From Sulfurovum sp. (GTDB taxonomy: Bacteria > Campylobacterota > Campylobacteria > Campylobacterales > Sulfurovaceae), in the NCBI GenBank assembly GCA_027062365.1, contig JAMOTK010000036.1, positions 1 to 36,224 of the forward strand: a DNA stretch of 36,224 bases. The letters run 5' to 3'. The position numbers and the translations under genes are program-made. Below, piece after piece: positions 136 through 7,299 of this stretch. Within the stretch, counting starts at the first letter, position 1. Each line of letters opens with the position of its first letter. The notes beneath the pieces are model-generated. The model did no database searches, had not been told where the DNA came from, and saw nothing but the letters and a program-made list of their open reading frames with translations.

Positions 136-1389
136 TTATCCCAAATTTCCTGCTAAATATCCAGAGGCAAATGACCATTGTAGGTTATAGCCTCCACATG
201 GTCCATCTATGTTCATGACTTCTCCACAAAAATATAATCCTTTTAGTTTTTTGCTTTGCATGGTGTAGGGGTCTATCTCTTTTAGGCTGATGCCACCTCT
301 TGTTATCATTGCCATTTTGAAGCCATCGTGTCCATTGATAGTGAGGGGAGTCCATGCTAAAAGTTCTATAAGATGGTCTCTGTTTTTGCCAGATAACTTT
401 GTAAATCCTATGCTATGGTCTATCTGGGCTATGTCGCATAAGGCAATGGCTACCGAGGAGGGAAGTAGGGTTTGTATGAGGGCTAGTGTGTTACGGTGGG
501 GGTCTTTAGCCAATGCATCTTTGAAGTGTGTGCGTAGTTGCTCTTGGTTCATGCCTTTGGTAAAATTGGCTAAGATAGGTACTTCGTCAAATTTGGAGAG
601 TAAAGGGGTAATCTCACGAGAGAAATCAAGTACCACAGGCCCACGTATCCCTCCTTTTGTAAATATCAAATCCCCTTTGGCTGAGCGTTTTTTATATTTT
701 TTTAGATTGACGTACATGGAGACTTTGGGGAGAGTATCGGCTCTACAGTCTGCTACCCATCTCTCTTTGACTTTAAGAGGCATCATCGCAGGGAATAGGT
801 CTGTGACCGTGTGTCCTACAGAGGTAGCCATAGGGTAGCCATCTCCTTCTGCTCCGAGCATCGGGTAGCCCATACCTCCTGTAGCGATAATCACAGCATC
901 GGCATAGAACGTATCACTTTGTGTCTGTACACCTTTGACCTTGCCTTCATCATGTACCAAAGTATCTACTTTTTGAGAGCATAAGACGTGGATACCAAGG
1001 TTTTGCATCTCTTGTTGCATTGCGTTGATAATCGTAGAGGAAGAGTGTGTGATAGGAAAAACCCTATAGCCATCAGGGGCATGACTTTCTACGCCTAGTG
1101 CTGTAAAAAATGCCATCAATGCTTTATAATCAAGAGCCTCTAAAGCAGGAGACATAAAGCGTCCATCACGTCCAAATCGTGCCATAAAATCTTCGTTGCC
1201 GAGGGTATTGGTAAGGTTACATCGTCCTCCTCCTGTGGCTTTGAGTTTGGCACCGATTTTAGAAAGTTTTTCTAGGAGTAGTACAGAGCGACCCTCACGA
1301 GAAGCTCTAATAGCCGACATCATACCAGCAGCACCTGAGCCTATGACGATAAGTTGATAGTGTGATTGGGTTATATCTTTAGGTTTCAT
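136..1389 (-). CDS. NAD(P)/FAD-dependent oxidoreductase, BaiN/HI0933 family
   Basis: A flavoprotein of about 417 residues, normal for the HI0933/BaiN family. Near the N-terminus is the Rossmann dinucleotide fold VIGSGAAGMMSA, followed by EKLSKIGAKLKATGGGRCNL, the family hallmark that contacts FAD. A second conserved block, GGMGYPMLGAEGDGY, lies mid-protein. The C-terminus has FCGEVMNIDGPCGGYNLQ, which closes the FAD site. The family is cytosolic and its physiological substrate is usually unknown; some members act in bile-acid or redox metabolism. I chose the ATG at 1387-1389. A GTG 27 bases upstream is possible, but a TATAAT-like sequence lies between the two, so the upstream codon is probably promoter DNA. 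No strong Shine-Dalgarno precedes the ATG. The gene is transcribed divergently from the methyltransferase beside it. Confidence 0.85.
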   Translation of the reverse strand: MKPKDITQSHYQLIVIGSGAAGMMSAIRASREGRSVLLLEKLSKIGAKLKATGGGRCNLTNTLGNEDFMARFGRDGRFMSPALEALDYKALMAFFTALGVESHAPDGYRVFPITHSSSTIINAMQQEMQNLGIHVLCSQKVDTLVHDEGKVKGVQTQSDTFYADAVIIATGGMGYPMLGAEGDGYPMATSVGHTVTDLFPAMMPLKVKERWVADCRADTLPKVSMYVNLKKYKKRSAKGDLIFTKGGIRGPVVLDFSREITPLLSKFDEVPILANFTKGMNQEQLRTHFKDALAKDPHRNTLALIQTLLPSSVAIALCDIAQIDHSIGFTKLSGKNRDHLIELLAWTPLTINGHDGFKMAMITRGGISLKEIDPYTMQSKKLKGLYFCGEVMNIDGPCGGYNLQWSFASGYLAGNLG

Positions 1390-1464
1390 AGTGATATTAT
1401 AAAATAATCTATACACTTTAAGTTGAAATCTATAAAATATGTTTTACTTATGAGGAGAAACAAC

Positions 1465-2409
1465 GTGAGATTTACCACCCAAACGATGCAAGAGATATTG
1501 CCATGGCTCAAACAACGCATCCACACAGAAGAAAAAGTAAGCTTTTTAGTACTCAATCCTGACCTCAGCGAAGGCTACGCAGGGCATACGGTCGTACTTG
1601 ATGAACAATACTATCTCTACCGTGGATACAAAGCATGGGTAGACTTAGCAGAGTTACTAAAATGTAAGATACTAACCCCTAGTATAGACGAGTATCCTTT
1701 TGTGAGACTCACATTTGTTAAGCTCAAAATGGATTCTTTTCATCATGATATATCGTTTGAGCATAACAAAAAAGAAGATGAAAAGTACGGCATGACATCA
1801 CACTTTTCTAAGATACACAAGATGGAAGAACCAGCATTTTATTATTATTACCTACAAGCACTTGAAAATGTAAAAATTTCTAAAAGAAAACGGGTTTTAA
1901 ATCTAGGTGTCAATAGGGGAGATGAGTTTGAAGTGATTCAAAAGCATGTAAAAAAAGAGGTGTATCAGAAGATTGACTTTGTAGGCATAGACCATTCTAA
2001 AAGTGCTATAGAATTTGCACAAGATAAGTATAAAAAATATACAAATATGACATTTTATACCCATGACATCAATAGGCTAGAGCATCTGTCTATAGGTAGA
2101 TTTGATATGCTCATTAGTATCGGCACACTCCAAAGCCCTAGTATTGCGTTCAAGCCTTTTTTTATGCAGTTGGTTCAAAAATATTTAGAAGAAGATACTG
2201 CGATTATTTTGGGTTTTCCTAACAGCCGTTGGGTAGGTGGAGAGCTACTCTATGGAGCAAAAGCACCCAATTATGCTATGTCTGAAATGAGTTTGGTGTT
2301 CAATGATATTATCTTTTGTAAAAAATATTTACAACAAAAACGATACCGTGTTACGATAACGGGTAAACAATATCTATTTTTGACAGCAACTAAGATAATA
2401 AAGAAGTAA
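1465..2409 (+). CDS. Class I SAM-dependent methyltransferase-like protein with an extra N-terminal domain
   Basis: The C-terminal half is a class I methyltransferase fold. Motif I is RVLNLGVNRGDEF (around residues 158-170), a degenerate form of the usual DLGCGxG. The acidic end of strand 2 is DFVGIDHS, and MTFYTHDIN and DMLISIGTL match the later strands. The N-terminal roughly 125 residues are not a standard methyltransferase part; I do not recognise them. I chose GTG at 1465 because AGGAGA ends 6 bases upstream, an ideal ribosome site. The in-frame ATG at 1450 and TTG at 1423 would place that site inside the gene. Predicted length is 314 residues with no signal peptide. The substrate is unknown. 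Confidence 0.65.
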   Translation: MRFTTQTMQEILPWLKQRIHTEEKVSFLVLNPDLSEGYAGHTVVLDEQYYLYRGYKAWVDLAELLKCKILTPSIDEYPFVRLTFVKLKMDSFHHDISFEHNKKEDEKYGMTSHFSKIHKMEEPAFYYYYLQALENVKISKRKRVLNLGVNRGDEFEVIQKHVKKEVYQKIDFVGIDHSKSAIEFAQDKYKKYTNMTFYTHDINRLEHLSIGRFDMLISIGTLQSPSIAFKPFFMQLVQKYLEEDTAIILGFPNSRWVGGELLYGAKAPNYAMSEMSLVFNDIIFCKKYLQQKRYRVTITGKQYLFLTATKIIKK

Positions 2410-2478
2410 ATCCATAAATACTTTAATGAAAATTTAGGCATACTTATAACTAATGTAAATTTTTTAAAAGGAAATAAA

Positions 2479-2865
2479 ATGAAAATTATTATTTTTATTA
2501 TTATTGTTGTAGGAGTGTGGATTAGTATACCCTTGTGGAGACCACAACCTACTAGCACTTTATCATCAAGTATTGTGCGTGATAGCGTCTCTTCTGTGCC
2601 AACAAAGAGACATGAATATGAGACCGATGATGAGATAGAAATTGTTACCGTACAAGATAAATTTGGTAAAAAATCAGCAGTAATGCATACCTTACGAAAC
2701 TACTGGAACTATACCTATAATAAAATAGATAATTTTGAATTTTTAAGATGTAGTAGGGCAGAAGAAGGAGAAAACGGATGGGAAATTACCTGTTCATATA
2801 GAATCAACTCAGGCATTACCCAAGATGAATATATTGTCAATAAAGGTGTCGTCACAAAAAGATAG
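2479..2865 (+). CDS. Small membrane-anchored protein of unknown function
   Basis: A 128-residue protein with an AAAAGGAAATAAA ribosome site directly before the ATG. Residues 3-19 are a hydrophobic helix (an I/V/F-rich run after MK), so the protein is either anchored by its N-terminus or exported. The rest is polar. A serine/threonine-rich linker (about 24-40) leads to a compact C-terminal region with two cysteines (LRCSRAEEG and EITCSYRIN), which could form a disulfide outside the cytoplasm. I do not recognise a family. A perfect stem-loop overlaps its last codons, so it is probably a single-gene unit. Confidence 0.7.
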   Translation: MKIIIFIIIVVGVWISIPLWRPQPTSTLSSSIVRDSVSSVPTKRHEYETDDEIEIVTVQDKFGKKSAVMHTLRNYWNYTYNKIDNFEFLRCSRAEEGENGWEITCSYRINSGITQDEYIVNKGVVTKR

Positions 2866-2881
2866 ACATCGCTATCTTTTT
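2856..2881. terminator. Bidirectional intrinsic terminator
   Basis: A perfect 10-bp inverted repeat, AAAAAGATAG / CTATCTTTTT, flanks a 6-base loop (ACATCG). The arms carry an A run on one side and a T run on the other, so it can terminate transcription both ways between the convergent genes. The left arm includes the last codons and stop of the small membrane protein. Confidence 0.8.
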
Positions 2882-2887
2882 CTATAT

Positions 2888-3568
2888 CTAAGGCTTAGCT
2901 ATCAGTCCCTCATACAACCTCTTTACTTTTTTTAAGTCTTCAAAAACTTCTTTTTTCTTGCTAGGGTTTTTGAGGAGGTAGGTAGGGTGATAAGTAGGGA
3001 TAACGGTGTACTTCTCGCTTTGGTGTAGCGTACCATGTATTTTGTCCATAGGGCTATCATCATTACTTAGGTACTGATAGGCTAATTCTCCAAAGGCTAT
3101 GATAATGCTAGGTTGGATGAGTTCTATCTCTTTGAGTAGGTAAGGGTAGCAAGTGTGGGTATGGGTAGGAGAGGGGTCTTGGGTATCTAGGGCATGACAT
3201 TTGAGTAAATTGCTAATATACACTTCATCACGACCTAATCCCAAAACTTTTTCTAGCATATTGGTCAGTATCTCTCCTGTACGTCCTGTAAATATCTTGC
3301 CGATACTATCATCGCTATTGTTAGGAAAATCACCAATAATCATGAGTGTGGCATCCTCTGACCCTTCTCCAAAGACAACATTATGTCTACTTTTACTTAG
3401 TGTACAAAGATGACACTCTTTGGCTTGTTTCTTCAATGAATCCAGAGTATTGGGTAGGGTTAAATCAGGTTCTTTTTCTTTGTAAGGATGTATAGAAGTA
3501 TAGGCATACCCCAATTGTTTGAGCTGATAGAGATGTTTGAGTAAAAGTGCATTTTTAAGATTTTTCAT
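2888..3568 (-). CDS. Uracil-DNA glycosylase, family 4-like (iron-sulfur type)
   Basis: A base-excision repair enzyme expected to remove uracil from DNA. Four cysteines are placed as in the [4Fe-4S] family: C52 and C55 (ECHLC), C124 (LLKCHAL) and C140 (HTCYPYL). The uracil pocket region is GEGSEDATLMIIGDFPN then GKIFTGRTGEIL, and the C-terminal HPTYLL corresponds to the family HPxxLL loop. The usual GEAPG motif is written GDFPN here, so the first catalytic-region glutamate is an aspartate. Residues 1-45 precede the family core; length 226 is within the usual range. It is convergent with the gene to its left and shares the terminator there. Annotators may call it uracil-DNA glycosylase family protein. 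Confidence 0.8.
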   Translation of the reverse strand: MKNLKNALLLKHLYQLKQLGYAYTSIHPYKEKEPDLTLPNTLDSLKKQAKECHLCTLSKSRHNVVFGEGSEDATLMIIGDFPNNSDDSIGKIFTGRTGEILTNMLEKVLGLGRDEVYISNLLKCHALDTQDPSPTHTHTCYPYLLKEIELIQPSIIIAFGELAYQYLSNDDSPMDKIHGTLHQSEKYTVIPTYHPTYLLKNPSKKKEVFEDLKKVKRLYEGLIAKP

Positions 3569-3597
3569 AAGTAGAGTATAACTTATTTTATATCATA

Positions 3598-4419
3598 TTA
3601 ATATTTTAATTTAAAATTGAAGTTAAAATAAGATTGAATCGTTCCTTCGTTTTCTGGAATGTTTTGTAGTTGGAAGTTATCCATATCTTGATTGTAGGCA
3701 TAATCAAGAGAAATTTCGATATTGGCTGAATGAAAGGCATCACTAAAAATGGCATTCATCTCTCCTATGGGATTGAGTAACCCTCTAGCAATACCACCTA
3801 AGAGAGCAGAATCATAGATTTTCCCATCATTATACATCAGACCATTATAGAGATAATTGCTTCCTTCTCCTAAGATAGAACCTAAAATCGGGGTGATAAA
3901 TAGGTCTTGTGTAGAGGGTACTTCGGCAAAAGCTTCCCAACCGTATTCCCAATAAAATGTAGACATCAGTGTGGTAAGTATGGCTGATTCTTGCCAAGAA
4001 AGTCCAGATTGTCTTCCCCATATATAAAAATAAGACCCAGCCACAGAATGCCCTACATAATTAATCATAAGGTCATCATTATCCATCACAGGACCTTTGG
4101 CAATATTTTCTGCATGTTTGCCTAATAGTACCTTGGCACTGCGTACCTCTTTGTCTTCTTCTGTCCAGTTACTAACCTCTTCAGGCAAGAGGGCAATTAC
4201 CCCTATGGTAGCAATAGCAAACACTTGTAAATAGGCTAATTCTATGGCTACTTTTTCATATCTTGGGTCTAGTTTATTTTGTGCTTCTACATCTTTTACT
4301 TCGATGTCTTGGATAGAGTATTCAAAATCATTCATCTCTTGATATGTTAGAGGGGTATACTCAAAAGAATAAGCATTTAAGTAGAGTACCCCAAAAGTAA
4401 AAAGTAAAAAATGATACAT
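3598..4419 (-). CDS. DUF3943 domain-containing protein
   Basis: A 273-residue protein with a short hydrophobic N-terminus that looks like a signal peptide (cleavage plausible near residues 16-19, LNAYS). The central block from NYVGHSVAGSYFYIWGRQSG through FYWEYGWEAFAEVPSTQDL to PILGSILGE is the DUF3943 signature, found in envelope proteins of unknown function. A hydrophobic helix at about 62-80 and the glycine-rich middle suggest membrane association. The C-terminal stretch alternates polar and aromatic residues and ends FNFNFKLKY, which would suit outer-membrane beta strands. It follows the vWA-like gene by 15 bases and is probably the last gene of that operon. No clear Shine-Dalgarno was seen. 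Confidence 0.75.
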   Translation of the reverse strand: MYHFLLFTFGVLYLNAYSFEYTPLTYQEMNDFEYSIQDIEVKDVEAQNKLDPRYEKVAIELAYLQVFAIATIGVIALLPEEVSNWTEEDKEVRSAKVLLGKHAENIAKGPVMDNDDLMINYVGHSVAGSYFYIWGRQSGLSWQESAILTTLMSTFYWEYGWEAFAEVPSTQDLFITPILGSILGEGSNYLYNGLMYNDGKIYDSALLGGIARGLLNPIGEMNAIFSDAFHSANIEISLDYAYNQDMDNFQLQNIPENEGTIQSYFNFNFKLKY

Positions 4420-4434
4420 ATTATTTTATATTTT

Positions 4435-5244
4435 CTAGCGTATGTTTTCTAATAACATTGGCGTACCAAATTCTTTTAGATTAGCATGGGTTAGTATAAA
4501 ATACTGTTCCCAAAAGTGTGTAAGTTGTTTGAGTGTTTTTGCATCTCTATATCCTTTGTGTCCTATGATACCTGCCCCAATGACATAAATATCAGCAGAA
4601 GCAAAATCGGCTATATGTCCTGATTTTTTTATTTTTTGTATTTCTGTTTTTGTATTGATTTTTTTGAGATTACCTTTGCTGTAAAATGAAATAATAGAAG
4701 AGTGTTCTATCATATCTGATACGAGTAATACGGTTTTACTTGATGCTTGTGAAGGCTTGATAATGTGCTTTGAGATGTCATTTAATGATTTGACAATATC
4801 AGAATGAGGCAATTTTTTATTTGCACCTTTGAGTACCCCTACAAGAGCCTTGGTCGCTTTTTTCTTTGCATATTTATATTGTCCATTCATACACCCTTGG
4901 TACTTACGTAGTACCTTTTTAGCGATGTCATGTTTAGACCCATCAGGCAAAAGTGCTTCTAGTTTACCCGAATAAGCTATATTGGTGTATTTACCATTGG
5001 CATTGGCAGAAAAAGAAGCAATCGTCACGGCGTAACCATTTTTAATAAATTGCATCATATTTTTATAGGTATATATCATCATATTTTTATCAAGAGGTGT
5101 GGTCTGATCAACTAAGATAAAAAGCTCTTTTTGCACAGTAGGATTAGGGTTTGTAATCTTTAGTGCATCATAACAACTAGGAACATCATTACGTGCAAAA
5201 ACAGCTACACTTAAAGCGAGTAGTGTTAGTAATAATTTTTTCAT
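4435..5244 (-). CDS. Secreted von Willebrand A-like protein, unknown function
   Basis: A 269-residue protein with a clean signal peptide (MKKLLLTLLALSVAVFA, cleavage after about residue 17), so periplasmic. The mature part starts like a vWA/integrin fold: strand KELFILVDQT with D46 at the MIDAS position, helix, strand YAVTIASFSA, and later TVLLVSDMIEH (D177). The metal-site DxSxS is degenerate (DQTTP), so metal binding may be lost. C24 and C118 could form a disulfide. The ATG shares one base with the stop of the upstream membrane-protein gene, so the two are translationally coupled and probably partners. The fold is inferred from motif order, not a firm family match. Confidence 0.65.
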   Translation of the reverse strand: MKKLLLTLLALSVAVFARNDVPSCYDALKITNPNPTVQKELFILVDQTTPLDKNMMIYTYKNMMQFIKNGYAVTIASFSANANGKYTNIAYSGKLEALLPDGSKHDIAKKVLRKYQGCMNGQYKYAKKKATKALVGVLKGANKKLPHSDIVKSLNDISKHIIKPSQASSKTVLLVSDMIEHSSIISFYSKGNLKKINTKTEIQKIKKSGHIADFASADIYVIGAGIIGHKGYRDAKTLKQLTHFWEQYFILTHANLKEFGTPMLLENIR

Positions 5245-6596
5245 TATCTATCCTCAAATGTAAGGTATTGTTTAAACGTTCTATCTTTGTTATTACGCAA
5301 TATAGCCGTTGTTTCTGCATCTGTTCCAGAATTATCATTGATAATGTTCATTTTATGTTGTAACTTCTGTAACTGACGTTGTGCCACACGTGCTATGTGC
5401 GTTTTGGCTCTTTCATAGTAGGCTAAGAATGCCTTTTTGGTACTAAAGCCTTTAAGACACTCAAATGCTTCTTTAGACTCACGTCCAGCAAAGTCCCAAT
5501 GCATACCAAAGAAAATACCCAAGATTTGGATAAACACAAACATAAGTCCCAAGATGACAAAAGTGGCTTCTCCACCTTTACGGTTGGTTTCATCTTCTAT
5601 AGACTCTTTATCGTTTGCACTAGTTTGGGTTTCTTTACTTACATCTTCACCAAAGAGGGATGAGAGGTCATCTTCTGCATTATCTGTAGCAGTGTCACCA
5701 AAGAGTGAAGCTATATCATCCTCTGCACCACTGTCTGCACCCCCAAATGGAGAAGCATCATCATTAAAGATGTTCATGGCACTTTCATGAGAAGAGGCTA
5801 TCTCTTGTGTGAGTACTTGATGTCGTATATAGGTTGCCCCAATAGCCACAGCAAAGATGAAAATAAGTGTTAAAATCGTCTTTGTATATGTGGTTTTTAC
5901 CTTATCATTTGCATCTACACGGTTAAGCATACGGATATAATTGGGGGATTTTTCATCATCGAAGGTATTGTCAATAGAGATGAGTTGGTCATCTGGCTTT
6001 AAGTCTCTCCAGTTTGTTCCACCTGCATTGTCATTTTTGTACCAACGGCGTATCTTTTGGATGAGTGTGTTTTTGTGTAGCTCTTGCCCTGTCATGTGTG
6101 TAAGCCATACGAGGAGTATCGCCAACATTGCTGCCACACCCACAGCTCCTTTTTGTTGTGTCGCTTCACTAGCCCCTGGTATGGTAAACCCTGCTAAAAC
6201 ATAGGCAAACCCAAATGCTTCTACGATAACAAGTACAAATATCATTACCCATATAAAAGTTGGTGTTGGTTTCCGTCCTAGTTCGCCTACAGAGTGCAGA
6301 TAGGCTTTGGCTTCATCAAAACTCTCAGAGTCTTTGTCTACTTTTTCATAGAAATTATAGTAATCTCTACAAAGTCTCTCTTCGGAGTAAAACCATTTAT
6401 GATTTTCATCAAAACCTTCTATATCTTTGGCAAGTCCTGATACATTCCCAATAATTGGTAAATTATAAAGTAAGTTGAGCCACCAAAATTTAACTTCTTG
6501 CCAATGTGTAATAACAAATGCCAATATAATGATACCAAAAGACAATATAATTGACTCCATCTTATAGAGGGTAAGAAATTCGATAATTTCATTCAT
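5244..6596 (-). CDS. Five-helix inner-membrane protein with an acidic SLFG-repeat loop
   Basis: A 450-residue protein of unrecognised family. Hydrophobic helices are near 14-30, 113-137, 149-167, 239-257 and 344-364. By the positive-inside rule, loops 31-112 and 168-238 and the tail 365-450 are cytoplasmic. Loop 258-343 is then periplasmic. That loop is strongly acidic and holds three copies of a short motif: DDASPFGG, DDIASLFGD and DDLSSLFGED (residues about 279-318). The tail has a basic, coiled-coil-like stretch (about 395-420). AAGGAG precedes the ATG at good spacing. The next gene overlaps the stop by one base and encodes a secreted vWA-like protein, a plausible ligand of the periplasmic loop. 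No ATPase or transporter motif is visible. Confidence 0.7.
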   Translation of the reverse strand: MNEIIEFLTLYKMESIILSFGIIILAFVITHWQEVKFWWLNLLYNLPIIGNVSGLAKDIEGFDENHKWFYSEERLCRDYYNFYEKVDKDSESFDEAKAYLHSVGELGRKPTPTFIWVMIFVLVIVEAFGFAYVLAGFTIPGASEATQQKGAVGVAAMLAILLVWLTHMTGQELHKNTLIQKIRRWYKNDNAGGTNWRDLKPDDQLISIDNTFDDEKSPNYIRMLNRVDANDKVKTTYTKTILTLIFIFAVAIGATYIRHQVLTQEIASSHESAMNIFNDDASPFGGADSGAEDDIASLFGDTATDNAEDDLSSLFGEDVSKETQTSANDKESIEDETNRKGGEATFVILGLMFVFIQILGIFFGMHWDFAGRESKEAFECLKGFSTKKAFLAYYERAKTHIARVAQRQLQKLQHKMNIINDNSGTDAETTAILRNNKDRTFKQYLTFEDR

Positions 6597-6647
6597 AGAT
6601 AACTCCTTGAAATATTTTATGCTTATTATATCTAAAAATAATTATCT

Positions 6648-7265
6648 TTATAACCCTTTCATAACAACGCTAAAAAGATATTCTACCTCATCATCTTCTA
6701 AGAATGTACTCTTTTTACTCGCAAAAAAATCAAATATTTTTTTGCTAGGGAGTGAGGGGCTGTAGATACAAGAGGGGTGTGCTGGTCTAAATCCTTGCAT
6801 AAGGGCGATGTCTTCTTCTATCTTTTGTTCACAGATAAAACAATTTTCTTCAGGATAGAGTCTGCCTTCATGTGATAGTAGTGTAATGTAACACTCACAG
6901 ACAAGGCGTTTTGGGTTTTGTTTGTCCCATCTTTTGGCTGCGTAGAGGAGTAAATCAAAATAGAAGCTTTCTAACTCTTGGGTATCTTTGAGATGGGGTT
7001 CAAACTTTTTGATAAAATTGTGCCATACGAGAAGTTTGTTTTTATCAAATATCCATGGAAATCCCATGTGAGAGAGAGAACGCAAACGGGGCATGAACCG
7101 TCCATCTTCGCCTTCTACTTCAAAGTCTACAAGATGACCTAATTGTAAGATAGAGTGCCTAGCCCCAAAAAAACGATAATAACTTCGTATATTAGAAGCT
7201 GTCAAAACAGTAGCAATAGAGTCTTCATTTTTAGCCCTATTGACGCAGAGTATAAAACCTTTGAT
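6648..7265 (-). CDS. recO: DNA repair protein RecO (Campylobacterota type)
   Basis: RecO loads RecA with RecR during gap repair. The sequence has the family stretch SYYRFFGARHSILQLGHLVDFE, then RLRSLSHMGFPW, and a C-terminal cysteine region (CFICEQKI ... AHPSC) where a metal site sits in many members. Starting at the TTG at 7205 would delete the first strands of the N-terminal OB fold. The reading frame continues upstream and encodes KGFILCVNRAKNEDSIATVL, which matches RecO N-termini. No ATG, GTG or TTG exists between that segment and the in-frame stop at 7290-7292. The best start is ATC at 7263-7265, with AGAAGG 7 bases upstream; ATA at 7269-7271 is an alternative. From ATC the protein is 205 residues. 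Confidence 0.75.
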   Translation of the reverse strand: MKGFILCVNRAKNEDSIATVLTASNIRSYYRFFGARHSILQLGHLVDFEVEGEDGRFMPRLRSLSHMGFPWIFDKNKLLVWHNFIKKFEPHLKDTQELESFYFDLLLYAAKRWDKQNPKRLVCECYITLLSHEGRLYPEENCFICEQKIEEDIALMQGFRPAHPSCIYSPSLPSKKIFDFFASKKSTFLEDDEVEYLFSVVMKGL

Positions 7266-7299
7266 GTGTATGCCTTCTTGATTTAAATGCTAAGACCTT

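What the first reader, a model, noticed from the sequence alone, without database searches (positions are those of the whole stretch)
3598..6596. Undescribed envelope cluster: five-helix membrane protein, secreted vWA-like protein and DUF3943 protein
Three minus-strand genes with overlap or 15-base spacing encode an inner-membrane protein with a large periplasmic acidic loop, a periplasmic vWA-like protein with a degenerate metal site, and a DUF3943 envelope protein. Coupling suggests a trans-envelope complex. No known secretion, pilus or transport motif is visible.
Basis: partly seen in the sequence, partly recalled or inferred. Interest (0 to 1): 0.6.

Follow-up and report, generated by a model that had tools for sequence, protein, structure and literature searches.

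The report
Paired membrane and periplasmic vWA proteins
Two always-adjacent, uncharacterised bacterial genes make an inner-membrane protein and an exported von Willebrand-A-type binding protein; in most other species a third gene for a peptidoglycan-binding outer-membrane lipoprotein sits next to them, so the pair looks like the core of an undescribed machine spanning the cell envelope.

Summary
Three minus-strand genes lie at 3598-6596 as described, but only two form a conserved unit. The five-helix membrane protein (MEM) and the exported vWA-like protein (VWA) occur in exactly the same 10 of 298 Campylobacterota genomes. They are adjacent, MEM first, in every locus examined, including eight Pseudomonadota genomes and plasmids of Pantoea, Paraburkholderia, Caballeronia, Aeromonas, Acidiphilium and Aliarcobacter. 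No curated family covers either. The vWA fold is confirmed by AlphaFold2 and PDB comparison. DUF3943 is a bystander: it occurs in 60 of 298 genomes but overlaps the pair only here, and its slot elsewhere holds a peptidase gene or nothing. Outside Sulfurovum nearly all loci have a third gene upstream: an OmpA-type peptidoglycan-binding lipoprotein with a conserved C-terminal domain of unknown family. Sulfurovum and one relative lack it. Best reading: the inner-membrane/periplasmic core of a trans-envelope tether or sensor whose outer subunit this clade lost. An invariant glutamate inside helix 2 and four of five MIDAS-type positions suggest a working mechanism. Remote alphaproteobacterial relatives sit in operons with Zorya-like motor proteins and exported nucleases, so a defence role remains possible. 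Function is inferred, not shown.

The parts
5244..6596 (-). MEM: 450-aa five-helix inner-membrane protein, predicted N-out/C-in; invariant Glu126 in helix 2, nearly invariant T166-H167 in helix 3, invariant R258 at the end of helix 4 and Q357 in helix 5
   Evidence: ORF; no Pfam/NCBIfam/PHROGs/PADLOC match at a meaningful E-value; alignment of 27 homologues; topology and conserved residues; AF2 model with no PDB match at E<=0.001
4435..5244 (-). VWA: 269-aa exported vWA-fold protein; signal peptide about residues 1-17; invariant D46, T48, S148, D177 at MIDAS-type positions; invariant C24 and C118
5242..5246 (-). TAATG stop-start overlap of MEM and VWA (translational coupling inferred)
   Evidence: sequence read
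6603..6608 (-). AAGGAG ribosome-binding site upstream of MEM
   Evidence: sequence read
5607..5777 (-). Codons 274-330 of MEM: acidic loop, predicted disordered, specific to the Sulfurovum clade; probably not the conserved interface
   Evidence: pLDDT mostly 33-48; gap in all non-Sulfurovum rows
3598..4419 (-). DUF3943 (YfiM-Griddle lipocone) gene: neighbour, not a conserved member of the unit
   Evidence: PF13084 5.7e-30; distribution; variable slot
2888..3568 (-). Uracil-DNA glycosylase gene: conserved downstream neighbour within Sulfurovum, probably unrelated in function
   Evidence: PF03167 5.3e-30; family F2 follows the pair in 10 of 12 readable Sulfurovum loci

Best explanation
MEM and VWA are the inner-membrane and periplasmic core of an undescribed trans-envelope complex. 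In most lineages the operon is lipoprotein-MEM-VWA; the lipoprotein is predicted to sit in the outer membrane and to grip peptidoglycan with its OmpA domain. [quoted passage not shown] Binding or strain would be passed to the helix core of MEM (E126, T166/H167, Q357) and from there to its cytoplasmic parts, which carry zinc ribbons in some Arcobacteraceae. Sulfurovum, the lineage of the window, has lost the lipoprotein and would use another partner or work as a two-part module. Shown: pairing, gene order, co-inheritance, vWA fold, export signals, conserved residues, absence of the lipoprotein's C-terminal domain in the three pair-bearing Sulfurovum genomes searched. Inferred: physical complex, metal-dependent binding, tethering/sensing role.
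For: MEM and VWA in the identical 10 of 298 genomes and adjacent everywhere. OmpA lipoprotein upstream in 8 of 8 strong Pseudomonadota hits, in all 8 plasmid loci fetched and in 6 Campylobacterota genomes. Its OmpA domain scores 4.7e-18 to 8.6e-21, with glycine zipper and lipobox. Distances of the three families correlate at r 0.90-0.96. vWA fold. Invariant residues. C-terminal domain absent in G000, G221, G264 and G250. The VWA family extends to alphaproteobacterial pairs (hhalign 98-99%) and one MEM branch does too (92.8%, E 3.9e-7).
Against: No interaction was tested; no co-fold could be run. MEM's model is only moderate (pLDDT 72.5) with no structural match. The window's lineage lacks the outer subunit, so a complete trans-envelope complex is not shown for it. 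The strict DxSxS motif is not kept. Shared ancestry of loci inflates the distance correlations.
Confidence: 0.5

Rival explanations
1. The cassette is a defence system against phage or incoming DNA, distantly related in plan to Zorya: a peptidoglycan-linked envelope sensor that senses infection and fires an effector.
For: Patchy presence (10/298 and 9/398 genomes) and carriage on plasmids. Remote alphaproteobacterial MEM'-VWA' pairs sit directly before ZorA-like and ZorB-like genes in 8 loci; ZorB-like proteins match PADLOC ZorB at 1.4e-27 and 7.4e-32 and are fused to SNase or HNH-type nuclease domains, or a signal-peptide SNase gene follows.
Against: The lipoprotein-MEM-VWA loci have no ZorA, no motor-type ZorB and no recognisable nuclease effector as a fixed partner. 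They sit among unrelated housekeeping or IS genes, not in defence islands. No PADLOC match to MEM or VWA. In Sulfurovum the pair has a conserved downstream neighbour. No relative found in phages or IMG/VR.
Confidence: 0.22
2. The three window genes, DUF3943 included, form one envelope complex.
For: Same strand, one-base overlap and 15-base gap; DUF3943 also follows the pair in L008.
Against: DUF3943 in 60/298 genomes, overlapping the pair only in G000; the slot holds an S41 peptidase gene in 5 Sulfurovum loci and no gene in 3.
Confidence: 0.04
3. Part of the predicted FtsZl1/vWA/OmpA membrane-remodelling systems of Makarova and Koonin 2010.
For: Those operons combine vWA, OmpA-domain and unnamed membrane proteins (PMC2875224).
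Against: No FtsZ-like GTP loop next to any locus; the one hit, in L130, carries the FtsZ signature loop and reads as ordinary FtsZ. No kinase or GTPase partner recurs.
Confidence: 0.06
4. MEM is a channel, transporter or export factor and VWA its periplasmic binding or delivery subunit, the OmpA lipoprotein being an optional anchor.
For: Invariant intramembrane Glu, His/Thr and Gln; pair retained without the lipoprotein in Sulfurovum and G250.
Against: No similarity to a known transporter or channel; no substrate-linked neighbour genes.
Confidence: 0.18

Closest known systems
FtsZl1-associated vWA/OmpA operons (Makarova and Koonin 2010, PMC2875224)
   Same: Uncharacterised multi-gene envelope systems that combine a vWA protein, an OmpA-domain protein and unnamed membrane proteins
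   Different: No FtsZ-like protein, kinase or GTPase in the cassette studied here; whether the vWA proteins are the same family could not be tested
Zorya anti-phage systems (PMC11890865)
   Same: Inner-membrane complex coupled to a peptidoglycan-binding OmpA-type domain; remote alphaproteobacterial relatives of MEM-VWA share operons with ZorA/ZorB-like genes
   Different: No MotA-like ZorA, no transmembrane ZorB and no ZorC/D/E effector in the cassette; PADLOC hits of its lipoprotein (1e-14 to 2e-9) cover only the shared OmpA domain
vWA proteins in motor-driven force transducers (PMC12204202)
   Same: A periplasmic vWA domain coupled to an inner-membrane machine
   Different: There the vWA domain is fused to a transmembrane helix with an SHLS motif; here it is a separate exported protein beside a five-helix partner
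DUF3943 / YfiM-Griddle lipocone family (PMC12419801)
   Same: The third window gene is a member (5.7e-30)
   Different: The family is reported with outer-membrane beta-barrels and lipid-handling genes, not with MEM-VWA

Membership tests
vWA-fold superfamily (for VWA) | vWA/Rossmann-like fold | tested here: met
   AF2 model pLDDT 87.4; vWA/I-domain chains fill the top PDB rows; VIA Z 10.6-12.0 over 148-195 residues
vWA-fold superfamily (for VWA) | MIDAS metal-site residues DxSxS...T...D (common, not required for membership) | tested here: inconclusive
   D46, T48, S148, D177 invariant in 27/27, fifth position lost; metal binding not testable here
Zorya | ZorA: MotA/ExbB/TolQ-type membrane protein | tested here: not met
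   MEM has no PF01618 or PADLOC ZorA match
Zorya | ZorB: single-TM MotB-like protein with intramembrane Asp and OmpA domain | tested here: not met
   No such gene beside the pair in the window; the partner elsewhere is a glycine-zipper lipoprotein with an OmpA domain
Zorya | Effector genes ZorC/D, ZorE or ZorF/G | tested here: not met
   Neighbours at 136-7205 are HI0933-like, methyltransferase, UDG, DUF3943 and RecO
FtsZl1 membrane-remodelling system | FtsZ-like protein with GGGTG(S/T)G loop in the operon | tested here: not met
   Motif scan of all fetched loci: one hit, reading as ordinary FtsZ in L130
OmpA/Pal-type peptidoglycan-binding lipoprotein (third gene in relatives) | OmpA domain (PF00691) plus lipobox | tested here: met
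   4.7e-18, 8.6e-21, 2.1e-20; Cys at lipobox position in 22/23, LSxxRA motif conserved. Not present in the window's own genome as a full-length homologue
DUF3943 (lipocone YfiM-Griddle) | PF13084 above gathering score | tested here: met
   103.8 bits against a cut-off of 27

The most novel reading that the evidence does not exclude
MEM-VWA is the conserved sensor module of a new class of peptidoglycan-linked envelope machines with exchangeable outputs: an OmpA lipoprotein in Proteobacteria and Campylobacterota, and a Zorya-like motor carrying a periplasmic nuclease in Alphaproteobacteria, the latter forming an undescribed defence against incoming DNA.
Probability: 0.2. Interest if true: 0.8.

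Novelty: new variant of a known kind. Interest (0 to 1): 0.5.

Why it matters
A strictly linked two- or three-gene cassette across two phyla and on plasmids, with no entry in Pfam, NCBIfam, PHROGs or PADLOC for two of its proteins, is a testable new envelope system. Its vWA-OmpA-membrane plan recurs in several uncharacterised or defence-related machines. The invariant intramembrane Glu and MIDAS-type residues give point mutants to test, and the remote relatives joined to Zorya-like motors and exported nucleases connect envelope sensing with possible defence.

Tried and rejected
DUF3943 as a member: rejected by distribution and slot variability. Acidic loop as interface: disordered and clade-specific. 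PDB relatives by sequence for VWA, MEM and the lipoprotein's C-terminal domain: none convincing. Structural relatives of MEM: no Foldseek match at E<=0.001 and only helical-bundle noise in VIA (Z<=5.9); MotA/TolQ-type folds simply did not appear, which does not exclude them. Homology of MEM to the larger alphaproteobacterial MEM' group was not significant directly (6% and 27% probability), only through the smaller group A7. Phage, IMG/VR and E. coli relatives: none. FtsZl1 link: no FtsZ-like gene. A full-length lipoprotein homologue elsewhere in the window's genome: only partial matches (best E 3.9e-5), C-terminal domain absent. Literature searches for a described system of this make-up found none.

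Full report
What is there. The window is contig 36 of a 2.3-Mb genome; its nearest relatives by these genes are Sulfurovum, phylum Campylobacterota. On the minus strand lie MEM (5244-6596, 450 aa), VWA (4435-5244, 269 aa) and a DUF3943 protein (3598-4419, 273 aa), followed by a uracil-DNA glycosylase gene and preceded by recO. MEM and VWA share one base in TAATG; a good AAGGAG site precedes MEM; VWA and DUF3943 are 15 bases apart. MEM and VWA match no family in Pfam, NCBIfam, PHROGs or PADLOC at a meaningful E-value.

The pair is real, the trio is not. In 298 Campylobacterota genomes VWA occurs in 10 and MEM in the identical 10; in each the genes are adjacent, MEM first. Ten further Sulfurovum-like loci and one Pseudomonadota locus show the same. 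In 398 Pseudomonadota genomes VWA has 9 strong hits, one of them the already known genome; the other 8 all carry MEM directly upstream. Twenty plasmids encode VWA: Pantoea, Paraburkholderia, Caballeronia, Aliarcobacter, Aeromonas and Acidiphilium; all eight plasmid loci fetched have the pair. Substitution is strongly purifying (dN/dS about 0.04-0.11). DUF3943 is present in 60 of 298 genomes and coincides with the pair only in this genome. In Sulfurovum the slot between VWA and the UDG gene holds DUF3943 (window, L008), an S41 peptidase gene (five loci) or nothing (three loci). DUF3943 is a lipocone family reported with outer-membrane barrels (PMC12419801), so it may well act in the envelope, but not as a fixed partner.

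Outside Sulfurovum the gene directly upstream of MEM is nearly always a lipoprotein with a glycine zipper, an OmpA peptidoglycan-binding domain and a conserved C-terminal domain of about 190 residues with two conserved cysteines. Full-length homologues occur in 6 of the 10 pair-bearing Campylobacterota genomes and are not seen in the others of the sample; ordinary OmpA domains are nearly everywhere. The C-terminal domain is absent from the window's genome, from five others of its genus and from G250. Pairwise distances of VWA, MEM and the lipoprotein correlate at 0.90-0.96 (shared ancestry inflates this).

What the proteins look like. VWA is exported: signal peptides throughout, lipobox-type starts in L028 and in the remote L090, and two invariant cysteines. 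Its AF2 model is good and vWA or integrin I domains fill the top PDB matches. D46, T48, S148 and D177 are invariant, so four of the five MIDAS-type positions are kept and only the last Ser of DxSxS is lost. MEM has five helices, N-out/C-in by charge. Invariant or nearly invariant are E126 in helix 2, T166-H167 in helix 3, R258 and Q357. The acidic loop between helices 4 and 5 is disordered and restricted to the Sulfurovum clade. Some Arcobacteraceae MEM proteins end in cytoplasmic zinc ribbons. MEM's model is moderate (pLDDT 72.5) and matches no solved fold.

Remote relatives. The VWA family extends to Alphaproteobacteria (hhalign 98-99%), where an upstream membrane protein is again present. 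One branch of that protein aligns with MEM over helices 2-4 (92.8%, E 3.9e-7), and that branch is firmly linked to the larger branch (98.9%), although the larger branch does not match MEM directly. In eight alphaproteobacterial loci the pair is followed by ZorA-like and ZorB-like genes. The ZorB-like proteins carry Glu where MotB and ZorB carry Asp; two are fused to SNase domains and one to an HNH-type domain, and in a fourth locus a signal-peptide SNase gene follows. That points to a possible defence role for that branch, but nothing of the kind accompanies the window's pair or the lipoprotein triads, whose neighbours are unrelated housekeeping or IS genes.

Mechanism. The most likely reading is an inner-membrane/periplasmic core (MEM-VWA) of a trans-envelope tether or sensor. 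In most lineages the OmpA lipoprotein would connect it to peptidoglycan and outer membrane; VWA would be the metal-regulated clip; and the polar residues inside the MEM helices would respond to the state of the clip. Pairing, order, fold, export and conservation are shown. The physical complex, metal dependence and biological purpose are inferred. A defence role is the main rival (0.22).

Novelty. The nearest described systems are the predicted FtsZl1-vWA-OmpA operons (PMC2875224), Zorya (PMC11890865) and vWA-tipped force transducers (PMC12204202). The cassette lacks the defining parts of Zorya and of the FtsZl1 systems. Literature searches of the open-access library found no description of it. 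I rate it a new variant of a known kind.

Noticed in passing
L091 5391-10663; L128 1-4726; L130 4463-9307; L131 4561-9612; also L132, L133, L135, L136: Alphaproteobacterial operon MEM'-VWA'-ZorA-like-ZorB-like; the ZorB-like protein is fused to an SNase (L128, L130) or GmrSD_C/HNH (L091) domain, or an exported SNase gene follows (L131). Possibly an undescribed Zorya-like system with a periplasmic nuclease.
   Followed up: partly
L027 11707-13248 (residues about 325-513) and homologues, alignment A11: C-terminal domain of the OmpA lipoprotein: no Pfam family, two conserved cysteines, YR and D motifs; among the genomes searched it is found only with MEM-VWA.
   Followed up: partly
window 3598-4419; L003 5153-6337: Variable slot between VWA and the UDG gene in Sulfurovum: DUF3943, S41-peptidase lipoprotein or nothing.
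   Followed up: yes
L023 3493-5010, L026 9631-11235, L027 10184-11695, L035 7334-8941: MEM proteins of Arcobacteraceae and relatives carry C-terminal zinc ribbons, giving the complex a cytoplasmic output domain.
   Followed up: no
window 6648-7205: The RecO ORF as listed starts about 21 codons late: the NCBIfam match begins at model position 22, so the true start lies upstream, near 7268.
   Followed up: no
window 2479-2865 (+): Small protein (128 aa) with an N-terminal hydrophobic stretch and no family match above cut-off, beside the UDG gene on the other strand.
   Followed up: no
L089 11158-14929: Very diverged lipoprotein-MEM-VWA triad in a Pseudomonadota genome (G549): same gene order although the lipoprotein is barely recognisable (3.5e-33 to the family HMM).
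   Followed up: no
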